A stretch of DNA of 64,000 bases from assembly GCA_013298665.1 (NCBI GenBank), contig JAAFIK010000003.1, positions 19,908 to 83,907 of the forward strand. Reading direction: 5' to 3'. Below are positions 53,050 to 58,878 of the stretch, piece after piece. The translations under genes and the position numbers were made by a program. The first letter of the stretch is position 1. Each line of letters opens with the position of its first letter. This stretch comes from Chitinophagales bacterium (GTDB lineage Bacteria; Bacteroidota; Bacteroidia; Chitinophagales; Chitinophagaceae). A model generated the notes under the pieces. It was not told the DNA's origin. It was given only the letters and a program-made list of their open reading frames with translations, and did no database searches.

Positions 53050-53331
53050 GATAACAAAACTGAGAACAGTTGTCCGTGTGAAAGAATTCATCAACCTGTT
53101 AAACAAACAAAAAGTATTACAAGCGTAAAAACACAAACAATCACTATTACGCACATTTCTTAGGCAACACAGGATCCGGCAAAATGAAATGGCTTTGCTG
53201 TTATGTTCATTTTACAAGATCTCCCTTTATCCAACATAACTTCTTACCTGCAATACGCACAGCACCATTTTGAGTATATGCTCCATGGTATTCTTACGTG
53301 CAAATCATTGATAAGATTAAAAACAACCAAT

Positions 53332-53691
53332 ATGAATCAAGCGCATTTGTGTCCCAATTCAGCCTTTACCGTAGGCAACAAAATTCTGGGGGTTAAAGAT
53401 GGCGATAAAACTGTACGCCTGGGTGAGCTTACCGTAATAACCCCGGAAATGTATGAAGACTTTGCACAATTTAAGGAAACCAACTCCATGTTCAGGATGA
53501 CGGGCAAATGCCAGCGCAACAATTGCAGCAACTGGAAAAATGACCACTGCAATATACCATCTATACTGGAGAAACTGGGCGTGGAAGCTGTAGATGAAAT
53601 ACCCGACTGCGACATCAGGCAGGGCTGTGTATGGTATGCCCAGGAAGGAGAAAGTATCTGCAGGTACTGCAACCAGATTTGTAACCAATAA
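53332..53691 (+). CDS. Small Cys-rich protein, possibly metal/Fe-S binding, first gene of RiPP locus
   Basis: 119 aa from MNQAHLCPNSAFTVGNKILG; CX4CX7C plus CX4CX9CX2CX3C patterns; longer upstream start at 53203 less likely. Confidence 0.65.
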   Translation: MNQAHLCPNSAFTVGNKILGVKDGDKTVRLGELTVITPEMYEDFAQFKETNSMFRMTGKCQRNNCSNWKNDHCNIPSILEKLGVEAVDEIPDCDIRQGCVWYAQEGESICRYCNQICNQ

Positions 53692-53702
53692 AAAATAGTC
53701 AT

Positions 53703-53882
53703 ATGAACAAAAAAGTAAAACTGTCGGCAGACAAAGCCAAACAACTGGCAGAAAAAATCAGGAAATATGAAAACCTGAATGCGAGTGTAAAAAACATACT
53801 CGGCGGTGTGGGCGAAGGCACCAGCAATCCCATGTTCAGCAGGCTTTCGGGGTACGTGGGTGAGGATCCCAAATCCCTGTAA
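53703..53882 (+). CDS. RiPP precursor peptide 1 (double-Gly leader)
   Basis: MNKKVKLSADKAKQLAEKIRKYENLNASVKNILGG|VGEGTSNPMFSRLSGYVGEDPKSL; under track length cutoff. Confidence 0.87.
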   Translation: MNKKVKLSADKAKQLAEKIRKYENLNASVKNILGGVGEGTSNPMFSRLSGYVGEDPKSL

Positions 53883-53974
53883 TGGACAGTATAACCGATG
53901 TCGTTTATCATGACCTTTCGCTTGTCAGGCTATGGTAAAGGATATGAATTTCGTAACAAAAAAACATACATAAC

Positions 53975-54139
53975 ATGAAAAAAGCAATCAAAGTGCCAAC
54001 AGAAAAGGCAAAACAAATCAGCGACAAACTGAAAAAGTACGAAAATCTTAATGCCGCAAGTAAGAACATTCTGGGTGGTATTGGTATCGGTTTTGGTCGC
54101 CTTGCAGGTATCGCTGCTGAGAAAGCTAAACAAGCCTGA
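53975..54139 (+). CDS. RiPP precursor peptide 2 (double-Gly leader)
   Basis: MKKAIKVPTEKAKQISDKLKKYENLNAASKNILGG|IGIGFGRLAGIAAEKAKQA. Confidence 0.87.
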   Translation: MKKAIKVPTEKAKQISDKLKKYENLNAASKNILGGIGIGFGRLAGIAAEKAKQA

Positions 54140-54241
54140 TTTCCGGCAGATGGAGCGTATCACTATGCGGTAATCTTACGGCAGGTACCTCTTTCGTCCG
54201 GAAGACAATCACCTATTTCTTTAATCATTAAATAAACACGT

Positions 54242-54415
54242 ATGAACAAATCAATCAAAGTTCCCGCCAGTGAGGCGAAAGTAATCAGCGACAAACTGAA
54301 AAAGTACGAGAACCTCAATGCCGCCTGCAAAAATGTAGTTGGGGGTATTGGCGTAGGTGCATTTCAGCGCCTGAGTGGCATCATCGCCGAAGATCCGCAA
54401 ATGAAGAATGCCTGA
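54242..54415 (+). CDS. RiPP precursor peptide 3 (double-Gly leader)
   Basis: MNKSIKVPASEAKVISDKLKKYENLNAACKNVVGG|IGVGAFQRLSGIIAEDPQMKNA. Confidence 0.87.
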   Translation: MNKSIKVPASEAKVISDKLKKYENLNAACKNVVGGIGVGAFQRLSGIIAEDPQMKNA

Positions 54416-54543
54416 TTGCTCTTCCGGCATTACAGGCAGATTGCTGTTTTGTATAATGCCGGAAAGCCATAAACAATCAGCGCCGGGCTTACCGGCATTA
54501 TTTGTTTATCTATTGTCCAGTAACCAATAAAAAATGACAACAT

Positions 54544-54714
54544 ATGAACAAGAAAGTCAAAGTTCCGGTTGAGAAGGCTGCAAAAATCAGCGAAAAGCTG
54601 AAAAAGTACGAAAACCTGAATGCTGCCTGTAAAAACATTGCGGGCGGTATAGGTGCCAGCTTTGGCCGCATGGGCGGTGCAAGGTATGAAAACGAAATGG
54701 CAAAGCACGCCTGA
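54544..54714 (+). CDS. RiPP precursor peptide 4 (double-Gly leader)
   Basis: MNKKVKVPVEKAAKISEKLKKYENLNAACKNIAGG|IGASFGRMGGARYENEMAKHA. Confidence 0.87.
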   Translation: MNKKVKVPVEKAAKISEKLKKYENLNAACKNIAGGIGASFGRMGGARYENEMAKHA

Positions 54715-54856: not shown

Positions 54857-56131
54857 ATGGATCAATTGCAGGAAACAGAAATACCTAAATGTGTAATGGC
54901 GGTGGTAAAAGTAGCCGGCCGGTGCAACATCAATTGTACCTATTGTTACATGTACAACTCCGGCGACAGTACTTCTGTGCAGCAGCCCAAACGCATGAGC
55001 GATGATACCGTAGCCCACCTCGTTGGCCGCGTGCGCGAACATTGCCTCGCGCATAGCATCAACCGTTTTACCTTTATCCTCCATGGCGGCGAACCACTGC
55101 TGGCCGGGATGGATTTTTTCCGCGACTTTGTAGCCAAAGCAAAGCAGGTATTGCTCCCCGAAGTAAAACCTTTGTTTGGGATTCAAACCAATGGTATGCT
55201 GCTGAATGAGGATTGGTGCACCCTGTTTGGCGAACTGAATATTACCGTTGGGGTCAGCCTCGATGGAACCAAAGAAGCACACGATATGTACCGTCTTGAT
55301 TTTAAAGGCCTGGGTACTTACGATAAAGTGGTGGCCGGATTGCAAATCGCACAGCAATCACCCGCACTGCCCCATCCTCCGGGTATCCTCTGTGTGCAGA
55401 ATGTAGATGCAGACCCCCTCAACGTATATGCTGCCTTTAAGGACCTCGGGGTTACCAATGTTGATTTTCTGCTGCCCGACCATACACACGATACACCACC
55501 CCCTGAAGCCCATTACCAGCACAGTCCGCATGCTTATGCCGACTGGCTCATCAAAATATTCGATACCTGGTTTTATGAGAAAGAAGGAACCATGCGTATC
55601 CGGTTCTTTGAATTTATTACAGGCACCATTCTCGGCTGCGATTATGATTTCGATTCCCTTGGCTTTAATAAAAACGAATTGCTCGTTGTGGAAACAGATG
55701 GCGGCATTGAAGCGCTCGATGTACTCAAATCCTGCGGTGATGGATTTACCAAAGCCGGTGCCAATGTAGCCACACACAGCTTTGACGACGCGATGCAGAC
55801 AGAACTGGCCCAGCTCTACCATTACAGCCATATCCGCCTGCCTGAAAAATGCAGCATATGCCCCGTACGCGAAATTTGCGGCGGGGGGTATATCCCGCAC
55901 CGCTACAGCAGTATCAACGGCTTCAATAATCCCTCCGTTTATTGCAACGACCTCCTCAAACTCATCACTCATATCCAGAATGCTGTAATCGACATACTAC
56001 CCCCTGAGATTGTAGCGGAAACGGATCTTGGTAAACTGACATATGACGAGGCCCTTGCCATTATTGCCGGCGAACTGGCAAAAAAGGAAGATCCCGCACA
56101 TACATTTGAACTGGAAAGCTTTAAGCAATAA
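54857..56131 (+). CDS. FxsB-like radical SAM/SPASM peptide maturase
   Basis: VAGRCNINCTYCYMYNSGD (CX3CX2C), FILHGGEPLLAG, VGVSLDG, SPASM CSICPVREICGGGYIPHRYSSINGFNNPSVYC. Confidence 0.92.
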   Translation: MDQLQETEIPKCVMAVVKVAGRCNINCTYCYMYNSGDSTSVQQPKRMSDDTVAHLVGRVREHCLAHSINRFTFILHGGEPLLAGMDFFRDFVAKAKQVLLPEVKPLFGIQTNGMLLNEDWCTLFGELNITVGVSLDGTKEAHDMYRLDFKGLGTYDKVVAGLQIAQQSPALPHPPGILCVQNVDADPLNVYAAFKDLGVTNVDFLLPDHTHDTPPPEAHYQHSPHAYADWLIKIFDTWFYEKEGTMRIRFFEFITGTILGCDYDFDSLGFNKNELLVVETDGGIEALDVLKSCGDGFTKAGANVATHSFDDAMQTELAQLYHYSHIRLPEKCSICPVREICGGGYIPHRYSSINGFNNPSVYCNDLLKLITHIQNAVIDILPPEIVAETDLGKLTYDEALAIIAGELAKKEDPAHTFELESFKQ

Positions 56132-56148
56132 CTTTGCCCTTACCGTTG

Positions 56149-58389
56149 ATGTTGTTCCAGTCTAAGTTCCCATATCATTTCCAGTACGACCGTATGGATT
56201 GCGGCCCCGCCTGCCTCCGCATGGTGTGCAACTATTTTGGCCGCGATTACGATGTCGATTACCTCCGCGGCATCACCCATATCAGCCGGCAGGGCGTAAG
56301 TCTGCTCGACCTCAGCGAAGCCGGCGAACAACTGGGCTTCCGCGCCATGATGATCCAGCTCACCGTAGATGAACTGCTCGAAGATTGCCCGTTTCCTGCA
56401 ATCCTGCACTGGAACCAGGAACATTATGTAGTTCTCTATGGCGTGGAACACAAAAAAAAATGGCTGTCGGGTAAATCCGCTGCCGACCGTATCCGTTTCA
56501 GGATAGCCGACCCTGCCCATGGCATCGTGCAGTTGGACAAAACAACCTTTGCCTCCAAATGGGAACGCGATGGAAAGGGGGTGGCCCTGGTACTCCTGCC
56601 CACAGATGCCTTTCTTGCAGAAGAACCGGCAGCCAAACCCACTGCCGATCGCGGCAAAGGATTGTACCACCTGCTCCGGTACATACGCCCGTATAAAAAA
56701 TATTTCTTTCACCTGCTGCTCGGAATGCTGCTCGGCAGCCTGATCTCCCTGCTCTTTCCCTTCCTGATGAAGAGTATGATCGACAAGGGGGTGGCAGGCA
56801 GGAGCCTTAGTATTGTACTGCTGATACTGCTCTCACAACTCTGTCTCTTTATCGGTGAGGTAGCCATCGACTTTCTCCGCAACTGGATACTCCTGCACGT
56901 CAATACCCGCGTGAGCCTGGCCATCATCTCCGACTTCCTCAACCGCCTCATGCGCCTGCCCGTAAAGTTTTTCGATGCTACCACCACCGGCGACATCAAA
57001 CAGCGCATCAACGACCATTACCGCGTGGAAAACTTCCTCACCAGCACTGCCCTCATCACCCTTTTTTCCATCGTAAACATACTGGTCTTCTCAATCGTAC
57101 TGCTTACCTACAACGGTAAAATATTTCTGCTCTTTTTTGGGTTGAGCCTCCTCGGTACCCTCTGGATCGTCATCTTCCTCAAACGGCGTAAAAACCTCGA
57201 ATACAAACGCTTCCAGAGCCTGAAAAACAACCAGGACAGCATCCTCGAAATCATTTCGGGCATGCAGGAAATCAAACTCAACAACAGCGAACTCACCAAA
57301 CGATGGGAGTGGGAACGCATACAAATTGAACTCTTCAAAGTCAATACCCGCAGTCTGGTACTCGACCAGTACCAACGTATCGGCTTTACCTTTATCAACC
57401 AGTTGAAAAATATCATCATCTCTTATATTGCCGCAGTGGAGGTCATCGGCGGTGGTATGTCGGTTGGTATGATGCTCGCCATCTCCTATATCGTTGGCCA
57501 GACCAACGAACCCCTCCGGCAACTCATTTTCTTTTTCCGCAGTAAACAGGACGCCTCACTGAGCCTGGAACGGTTACGCGAAGTACACCTTAAAGAAACG
57601 GAAGAAGAAGAACAGGGAGCCGCACCGTCGGGCTGGACCGGTGAACCCGAAGGCGATATCCGCATCAGCCGGCTTTCCTTTCAGTATGGCGGCCCGCACT
57701 CGCCGGTAGTACTCAAAAACATCAACCTGACAATACCCCGGGGAAAAATAACGGCCATTGTAGGCGATAGTGGCAGTGGCAAAACCACACTGATGAAATT
57801 GTTGCTGAAGTTTTATCAGCCCGCAGAAGGTGCCATCACCATTGGCAACGCTGCACTGCAGGATATCCCCAACCGCATCTGGCGCGGTCAATGCGGCACC
57901 GTAATGCAGGATGGTTATATTTTTGCCGATACCATCGCCAGGAATATTGCGCCAGGTGGCGGTGTCATTGATGAGGCGCAGGTAAAAAAAGCGGTGGAAG
58001 TAGCCAATATCGGCGAGTTTATTGATGCATTGCCTGTAAGTTTTGCCACCAGGCTGGCTGCTGGTGGAGGCGGACTTAGTGGCGGACAAAAACAACGCCT
58101 CCTCATTGCCCGGGCCATCTATAAAGATCCATCATACCTGTTCTTTGACGAAGCGACCAGCTCCCTTGATGCAGGTAATGAAAAAGTGATCATGGAAAAC
58201 CTCAATGCGTTCTTTACCGGCAAGACGGTGCTCATCATTGCACACCGGCTGAGTACCGTGCGCAATGCAGACCAGATCATTGTATTGCAAAAAGGGGAGA
58301 TTGCAGAACAGGGCAATCATGAACAACTCGTGGAAAAGAAAGGCGCATATTTCAACCTTGTCAAAAATCAATTGGAATTAGAAAAATAA
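56149..58389 (+). CDS. Peptidase-containing ABC transporter (C39 peptidase + TM + ABC ATPase)
   Basis: C39: YDRMDCGPACLRMVCNYFGR, HWNQEHYVVLYG, DPAHG; Walker A GDSGSGKTTL; signature LSGGQKQRLLIARAIYKDPSYLFFDEATSSLD; ATG at 56149 (track used TTG at 56134). Confidence 0.95.
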   Translation: MLFQSKFPYHFQYDRMDCGPACLRMVCNYFGRDYDVDYLRGITHISRQGVSLLDLSEAGEQLGFRAMMIQLTVDELLEDCPFPAILHWNQEHYVVLYGVEHKKKWLSGKSAADRIRFRIADPAHGIVQLDKTTFASKWERDGKGVALVLLPTDAFLAEEPAAKPTADRGKGLYHLLRYIRPYKKYFFHLLLGMLLGSLISLLFPFLMKSMIDKGVAGRSLSIVLLILLSQLCLFIGEVAIDFLRNWILLHVNTRVSLAIISDFLNRLMRLPVKFFDATTTGDIKQRINDHYRVENFLTSTALITLFSIVNILVFSIVLLTYNGKIFLLFFGLSLLGTLWIVIFLKRRKNLEYKRFQSLKNNQDSILEIISGMQEIKLNNSELTKRWEWERIQIELFKVNTRSLVLDQYQRIGFTFINQLKNIIISYIAAVEVIGGGMSVGMMLAISYIVGQTNEPLRQLIFFFRSKQDASLSLERLREVHLKETEEEEQGAAPSGWTGEPEGDIRISRLSFQYGGPHSPVVLKNINLTIPRGKITAIVGDSGSGKTTLMKLLLKFYQPAEGAITIGNAALQDIPNRIWRGQCGTVMQDGYIFADTIARNIAPGGGVIDEAQVKKAVEVANIGEFIDALPVSFATRLAAGGGGLSGGQKQRLLIARAIYKDPSYLFFDEATSSLDAGNEKVIMENLNAFFTGKTVLIIAHRLSTVRNADQIIVLQKGEIAEQGNHEQLVEKKGAYFNLVKNQLELEK

Positions 58390-58398
58390 TAACAGCCT

Positions 58399-58878
58399 AT
58401 GCCCGGTGCATTCGATAGTACAGATACCCATACAAAAGACATACTCAATGCCATCCCCAAATGGTATGTCCGCTTCGGTATGCCCATATTGGCTGGGGTA
58501 TTTGTGCTGCTGCTCCTTGTATCCACCCGGGTATCTTATCCCGATTACCTCGAAACAACCGGTTTCCTCCAGTCCGGCAGCCATACCTCACCTGATAGCA
58601 TGGCTTCGTATTTTATCACCCGGCTGCCACAGCAGTATATGCCCCTGATCAAAAAAGGAAGTACAGCCAGCCTCACCATCGACGCATGGCCGGCAGTTAG
58701 TCAACTCAGGGGAGAGGTAGACAGTCTCTTACCTCCAATGGCCAGCGATAAAACCTTTGGTGTACGCCTCCGCATCAGGGAAGGCATGACCATCACAATG
58801 CCGGTACAGGATAGTCTCACCGGTACCGCTGCATTCCTCCTGGGCGAACGCTCGCTGTTTGGACAATTGTTCCGTTGA
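58399..58878 (+). CDS. Short HlyD-like membrane fusion/adaptor protein
   Basis: 159 aa, single N-terminal TM (PILAGVFVLLLLVSTRV), HlyD C-terminal-like beta segment (LIKKGSTASLTIDAWPA...GMTITMPVQDSLTGTAAFLLGERSLFGQLF). Confidence 0.7.
   Translation: MPGAFDSTDTHTKDILNAIPKWYVRFGMPILAGVFVLLLLVSTRVSYPDYLETTGFLQSGSHTSPDSMASYFITRLPQQYMPLIKKGSTASLTIDAWPAVSQLRGEVDSLLPPMASDKTFGVRLRIREGMTITMPVQDSLTGTAAFLLGERSLFGQLFR

What the first reader, a model, noticed from the sequence alone, without database searches (positions are those of the whole stretch)
53703..54714. Invariant core motif F-x-R-[LM]-x-G-x3-E in all four peptides: possible Phe-x-Arg cyclophane
Seen: cores after GG read VGEGTSNPMFSRLSGYVGEDPKSL, IGIGFGRLAGIAAEKAKQA, IGVGAFQRLSGIIAEDPQMKNA and IGASFGRMGGARYENEMAKHA. 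Distance from GG to Phe varies (core position 10, 5, 6, 5), but F-x-R-[LM]-x-G-x3-E is kept in every one while flanking residues diverge. Established: three-residue cyclophane enzymes link an aromatic residue to the C-beta of the residue two positions on; FxsB acts on Phe-x-Ser. Inference: here the ring would be Phe-x-Arg, a target I do not recall as typical for this family.
Basis: partly seen in the sequence, partly recalled or inferred. Interest (0 to 1): 0.88.

Follow-up and report, generated by a model that had tools for sequence, protein, structure and literature searches.

The report
Bacteroidota triceptide cluster, Phe-x-Arg motif
Four tiny genes next to a radical enzyme encode peptides whose one shared ring-forming motif, Phe-x-Arg, is probably closed into a small carbon-carbon ring before export; the class of peptide is known, and the Phe-Arg ring would be a modest new variation on it rather than a new kind.

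Summary
Four GG-leader peptides (53703-54714, +) share F-x-R-[LM]-x-G-x3-E in otherwise divergent cores. The shared residues are kept through synonymous codon changes, including Arg AGG versus CGC, so they are not a recent DNA copy. Downstream lie a radical SAM/SPASM enzyme (54857-56131), a C39 peptidase-ABC exporter and a shortened HlyD-like protein. The enzyme's nearest solved relative is the cyclophane synthase ChlB; NCBIfam places it just under the FxsB cut-off and well under YhhB's. It sits in a Bacteroidota clade for which no named family was met. Beside its relatives, precursor cores carry aromatic-x-X motifs, with R/K/Q/E/N at +2 in 64% of cases against 26% in shuffled cores. Phe-x-Arg recurs there: 17 of 17 Mucilaginibacter precursors carry F-[ST]-[RK]. 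In cores 2 and 3 that Phe is the only aromatic residue. A Phe-x-Arg cyclophane is therefore the best inference (about 0.8). 'Atypical' is overstated: Trp-, Tyr- and His-x-Arg and Phe-x-Asn/Ser cyclophanes are published, so Phe-Arg is an expected permutation, not found in the sources I could read. The nearest homolog (64% identity) has HxQ/FxE, so the enzyme type does not fix Arg. No chemistry was tested.

The parts
53703..53882 (+). Precursor 1, 59 aa; leader ends ILGG, core VGEGTSNPMFSRLSGYVGEDPKSL; predicted ring F45-S-R47
   Evidence: ORF and alignment A1; aromatic triplets
53975..54139 (+). Precursor 2, 54 aa; core IGIGFGRLAGIAAEKAKQA; predicted ring F-G-R, the only aromatic in the core
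54242..54415 (+). Precursor 3, 57 aa; core IGVGAFQRLSGIIAEDPQMKNA; predicted ring F-Q-R, the only aromatic in the core
54544..54714 (+). Precursor 4, 56 aa; core IGASFGRMGGARYENEMAKHA; predicted ring F-G-R, possible second ring Y-E-N
54857..56131 (+). Radical SAM/SPASM enzyme, 424 aa (CNINCTYC motif), predicted three-residue cyclophane synthase
   Evidence: Pfam PF04055; NCBIfam FxsB 353.7 bits vs cut-off 370, YhhB 346.7 vs 445; ChlB 9gm3 E 1.7e-66; model pLDDT 92, Foldseek to 9gmc TM 0.83/0.94
56134..58389 (+). C39 peptidase-containing ABC exporter, 751 aa in the ORF as listed (TTG start); expected to cut after GG and export the core
   Evidence: PF03412, PF00664, PF00005; homologous exporter beside related rSAMs
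58399..58878 (+). Shortened HlyD-like membrane protein, 159 aa: one TM helix plus a small beta domain
   Evidence: HlyD_D23 weak (E 0.026); model pLDDT 83; Foldseek best hit BesA, then MFPs ZneB, MacA, MexA
53332..53691 (+). Cys-rich protein ending 11 bp before precursor 1; probably co-transcribed, role unknown, may not belong to the pathway (the ORF as listed starts at 53203)
   Evidence: absent from related clusters

Best explanation
This is a triceptide-type RiPP cluster. The radical SAM/SPASM enzyme binds the conserved leader of each of four precursors and joins the ring of the core Phe to the C-beta of Arg two residues on, giving a three-residue cyclophane (-2 Da). The C39-ABC protein then cuts after GG and exports 19-24-residue peptides, each with one conserved ring (core 4 possibly two). 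Shown here: the genes, homology to cyclophane synthases, motif conservation through codon change, and the aromatic-x-X pattern across relatives. Inferred: that modification happens, that it is at F-x-R, the attachment atoms (aryl carbon of Phe to C-beta of Arg, by analogy with published triceptides), and processing after GG. Biological role is a guess: an exported peptide used against, or to signal to, neighbouring bacteria.
For: Enzyme: best NCBIfam models are cyclophane maturases FxsB, YhhB and XyeB; nearest solved structure is ChlB by sequence and by fold. Substrate: F-x-R is the only aromatic triplet invariant in all four cores, and the only aromatic at all in cores 2 and 3; codons differ. 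Clade-wide: with a mechanical choice of precursors, R/K/Q/E/N occupy +2 from an aromatic in 86 of 134 cases (64%) against 26% in shuffles, 0 of 2000 reaching it, with no such rise at +1 or +3; the hand-picked set gives 76%. Mucilaginibacter: 17 of 17 precursors carry F-[ST]-[RK], 15 of them with Arg. The A1 leader/core profile, run on 7,824 ORFs, hit only the window precursors and precursors beside related rSAMs at E<0.5, the latter weakly. Published precedents: Trp-Arg, Tyr-Arg, His-Arg, Phe-Asn and Phe-Ser cyclophanes (PMC11002830).
Against: No product was observed. The four precursors are paralogues in one genome; the family was not found elsewhere in 399 genomes of the order. The nearest enzyme relative (64% identity) has HxQ/FxE cores, not F-x-R. 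G50 and E54 are as invariant as F and R and have no role in the ring model. The enzyme meets no curated family cut-off.
Confidence: 0.8

Rival explanations
1. The enzyme forms a Phe-Arg cross-link, but at a carbon of Arg other than C-beta, or a different radical modification of F or R.
For: Radical SAM enzymes join Arg to Tyr in ryptides (cited in PMC9055067), so Arg side-chain chemistry outside triceptides exists. The enzyme falls below the curated cut-offs of named cyclophane families.
Against: All closest enzymes by sequence and fold are cyclophane synthases. The +2 residue varies among R/K/Q/E/N across relatives, which fits chemistry at the shared C-beta better than Arg-specific chemistry.
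Confidence: 0.1
2. F-x-R-[LM]-x-G-x3-E is mainly a recognition or bioactivity motif and the modified site is elsewhere or variable.
For: The motif extends past the ring (G50, E54 invariant), and core 4 has a second candidate triplet Y-E-N.
Against: Cores 2 and 3 contain no other aromatic residue, and every characterised relative of this enzyme acts on an aromatic residue (PMC11002830). The same triplet pattern recurs in relatives without the G-x3-E tail.
Confidence: 0.07
3. The shared motif only reflects recent gene duplication and carries no information about modification.
For: The four precursors are tandem paralogues with a strongly conserved leader.
Against: DNA identity is only 55-67%, synonymous sites differ at the conserved residues including AGG versus CGC for Arg, and the flanking core residues have diverged.
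Confidence: 0.03

Closest known systems
YhhB triceptide maturase (NCBIfam NF041707)
   Same: Radical SAM/SPASM, close in HMM score (346.7 bits); reported to link Tyr-x-Arg and His-x-Arg at Arg C-beta (PMC11002830)
   Different: Score below its cut-off of 445; aromatic partner here is Phe
FxsB / MscB triceptide maturase (NCBIfam TIGR04269)
   Same: Best-scoring family (353.7 bits); MscB is reported to use Phe as the aromatic partner
   Different: Just below its cut-off of 370; its reported target is Phe-Ser, here Phe-x-Arg inside a longer core
XncB (XyeB family, TIGR04496)
   Same: Reported to link Trp to C-beta of Arg or Asn and Phe to C-beta of Asn
   Different: Much weaker match (210.7 bits, cut-off 450)
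ChlB multiple-cyclophane synthase (PDB 9gm3, 9gmc)
   Same: Nearest solved structure; Foldseek TM 0.83/0.94, 35% identity over the aligned part
   Different: The database entry is a radical SAM domain of a protein reported as fused to a hydroxylase (PMC12636437); here the protein is free-standing with a further 45 or so C-terminal residues shared by its Bacteroidota relatives
Uncurated Bacteroidota relatives (Mucilaginibacter, Pedobacter, Chryseobacterium, Chitinophaga and others)
   Same: rSAM 45-64% identical, GG-type leaders, aromatic-x-[RKQEN] cores, often the same C39-ABC exporter
   Different: Usually two or more rings' worth of triplets per core; the ones scanned match no NCBIfam precursor model either

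Membership tests
Triceptides (three-residue cyclophane RiPPs) | Radical SAM/SPASM maturase related to known 3-CyFEs | tested here: met
   CNINCTYC motif and conserved C-terminal Cys; FxsB/YhhB/XyeB top hits; ChlB by sequence and fold
Triceptides (three-residue cyclophane RiPPs) | Precursor core with aromatic-x-X triplet | tested here: met
   F-x-R in all four cores; +2 enrichment across relatives
Triceptides (three-residue cyclophane RiPPs) | Aryl carbon to C-beta bond in the product (-2 Da) | not testable with these tools
   Needs expression, MS and NMR
FxsB family (TIGR04269) | Curated score cut-off 370 bits | tested here: not met
   353.7 bits
FxsB family (TIGR04269) | Precursor ending in Phe-x-Ser near the C-terminus (from memory of the family name) | tested here: not met
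   Cores carry F-x-R, internal, followed by 12-14 residues
YhhB family (NF041707) | Curated score cut-off 445 bits | tested here: not met
   346.7 bits; none of 297 sampled genomes of the phylum passes the cut-off
YhhB family (NF041707) | Tyr/His-x-Arg targets | tested here: not met
   Phe is the aromatic partner candidate in all four cores; Arg is shared
Double-glycine leader / C39-ABC export | GG leader and C39 peptidase fused to ABC exporter | tested here: met
   GG invariant; PF03412 + ABC domains. Actual cleavage after GG not tested

The most novel reading that the evidence does not exclude
A Bacteroidota clade of cyclophane synthases not covered by any curated family joins Phe (and Tyr, Trp, His) to the C-beta of long polar or charged residues, with a Phe-to-Arg ring that has not been characterised before; this window is a single-ring, four-precursor example.
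Probability: 0.5. Interest if true: 0.5.

Novelty: new variant of a known kind. Interest (0 to 1): 0.4.

Why it matters
If the ring is Phe-Arg, the known triceptide chemistry extends to one more aromatic/aliphatic pairing, and precursors 2 and 3, each with one possible site, would be very clean substrates for asking how these enzymes choose the residue at +2. More broadly, a sizeable set of Bacteroidota clusters with aromatic-x-[RKQE] cores sits outside the curated families, so current annotation will under-call them. A paper of 2025 says the bioactivities of triceptides have not been elucidated (PMC12257519).

Tried and rejected
Recent duplication as the cause of the shared motif: rejected on codon divergence. 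Naming the precursors from family libraries: no Pfam match, only spurious sub-threshold NCBIfam matches; related precursors match nothing either. Finding the same precursor family elsewhere: none in 399 genomes of the order, including other genomes of the genus. Finding true YhhB in the phylum for comparison: none over the cut-off in 297 genomes. Reading the primary triceptide papers (Sugiyama 2022, Phan and Morinaka 2024, Ruel 2025, Suarez 2024): not held, so I rely on a 2024 review, and absence of a published Phe-Arg ring is not established. The rSAM tree resolves the window with L002 (100/99) but little else, and ChlB is a long branch there, so I draw nothing more from it. I picked cores by eye first, then repeated with a mechanical rule; the effect stayed but was smaller (64% rather than 76%), and that set still contains some spurious ORFs and related sequences, so the shuffle result is not a strict probability.

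Full report
WHAT IS THERE. Four small ORFs lie in tandem on the + strand at 53703-53882, 53975-54139, 54242-54415 and 54544-54714. They share a leader (K-Y-E-N-L-N-A, then K-N and GG) and, after GG, F-x-R-[LM]-x-G-x3-E; invariant core columns are G37, F45, R47, G50 and E54. Next come a 424-residue radical SAM/SPASM protein (54857-56131), a C39 peptidase-ABC exporter (56134-58389) and a 159-residue HlyD-like protein (58399-58878).

MORE THAN CHANCE. Shuffled cores give F-x-R in all four in 2e-5 of trials. The copies are not recent DNA duplicates: identity is 55-67%, and the conserved residues differ in codon, Arg being AGG in one and CGC in three. Selection on the residues is the natural reading.

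THE ENZYME. NCBIfam ranks it as FxsB (353.7 bits, cut-off 370), YhhB (346.7, cut-off 445), then XyeB (210.7, cut-off 450): a cyclophane-maturase relative that formally belongs to none of them. The nearest solved structure is ChlB, by sequence (E 1.7e-66) and by fold (model pLDDT 92; TM 0.83/0.94). All 37 aligned relatives match both FxsB and YhhB models, and the radical SAM Cys (C23, C27, C30) and four C-terminal Cys (C332, C335, C341, C363) are invariant. The cluster is patchy: the enzyme was found in 8 of 299 genomes of the family at E <= 1e-40 and in none of the five other genomes of the genus in that sample, while the nearest relative in the genome collection is a Flavobacteriales MAG at 64% identity.

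THE TARGET. In cores 2 and 3 the Phe is the only aromatic residue, so if the enzyme acts as its relatives do, F-x-R is the only possible site. Core 1 has a Tyr followed two on by Gly, which has no C-beta; core 4 has Y-E-N, a possible second ring. Beside related rSAMs I took small same-strand ORFs by a mechanical rule and removed near-duplicates: R/K/Q/E/N stand two after an aromatic in 86 of 134 cases (64%), against 26% in shuffles (0 of 2000), with 20% at +1 and 11% at +3. For Phe alone the +2 residues are led by E, then R and K. In three Mucilaginibacter loci all 17 precursors carry F-[ST]-[RK], 15 with Arg. Other examples are LFNRHSSWNQFDK (L010), YSQSYSR (L034) and WGRSWGRSWGR (L042). The closest relative, L002, instead has THSQ and TFSE. 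So the triplet is the conserved feature of the clade and the residue at +2 changes between clusters.

MECHANISM, WITH STATUS. Inferred by analogy with characterised triceptide enzymes: the radical from S-adenosylmethionine removes a hydrogen from Arg C-beta, the carbon radical attacks the Phe ring, and loss of one more electron and proton restores aromaticity (-2 Da); radical attack of the aliphatic residue on the aromatic ring is the mechanism described for this group in PMC12257519. The exporter then cuts after GG (C39 domain present; cleavage not shown). The predicted products are peptides of 19, 21, 22 and 24 residues.

WHAT IS KNOWN. A 2024 review reports Trp-Arg (XncB), Tyr-Arg and His-Arg (YhhB), Phe-Asn (XncB, OscB) and Phe-Ser (MscB) rings (PMC11002830). 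Arg at +2 and Phe as donor are therefore each known; the pairing was not found in what I could read, and the primary papers are not held. I rate this a new variant of a known kind, with a small step in novelty.

LIMITS. No chemistry was done. The precursor family is confined to this genome among those searched. The relatives' cores are not independent of one another, so the enrichment statistic is descriptive. G50 and E54 remain unexplained.

Noticed in passing
window 58399-58878; L002:9534-10019, L029:10380-11678, L013:9540-9914, L010:5905-6036, L011:9421-9549, L033:9394-9510 and others: The gene right after the C39-ABC exporter forms a graded length series sharing an N-terminal 'IP' plus one-TM segment: 432 aa (full HlyD), 238-248, 154-180 (window, 159), 124, and only 38-43 aa in Chryseobacterium, Flavobacterium and a Flavobacteriaceae MAG. 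The window's version models as TM helix plus a small beta domain, best fold match BesA, then other membrane fusion proteins. It looks like reduction of a membrane fusion protein down to its anchor; for the shortest forms this rests on position and a short motif only.
   Followed up: partly
window 53332-53691; L060:1486-1920, L061:1489-1845, L062:1474-1836, L063:1465-1866: An unnamed Cys-rich protein just upstream of precursor 1. Its homologs, including a paralogue elsewhere in the same genome, each sit directly next to a small ORF of 77-108 aa with a shared N-terminal pattern (e.g. L061:1167-1487), suggesting a peptide plus Cys-rich-protein pair of unknown function.
   Followed up: partly
L003, L004, L007, L009, L016, L018, L019: Several related clusters carry two or three rSAM genes of this clade (two adjacent, a third nearby in some), which might share out different triplets of one precursor.
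   Followed up: no
L005, L006, L012, L043 and the ends of L016 and L018: A second precursor type recurs: a pair of GG peptides, one with DKEYKP/DREYIP...YED and one with GGFVEV/GGFIE-type cores.
   Followed up: no
window 54544-54714: Precursor 4 has a second candidate triplet, Y-E-N, so it may carry two rings while the others carry one.
   Followed up: no
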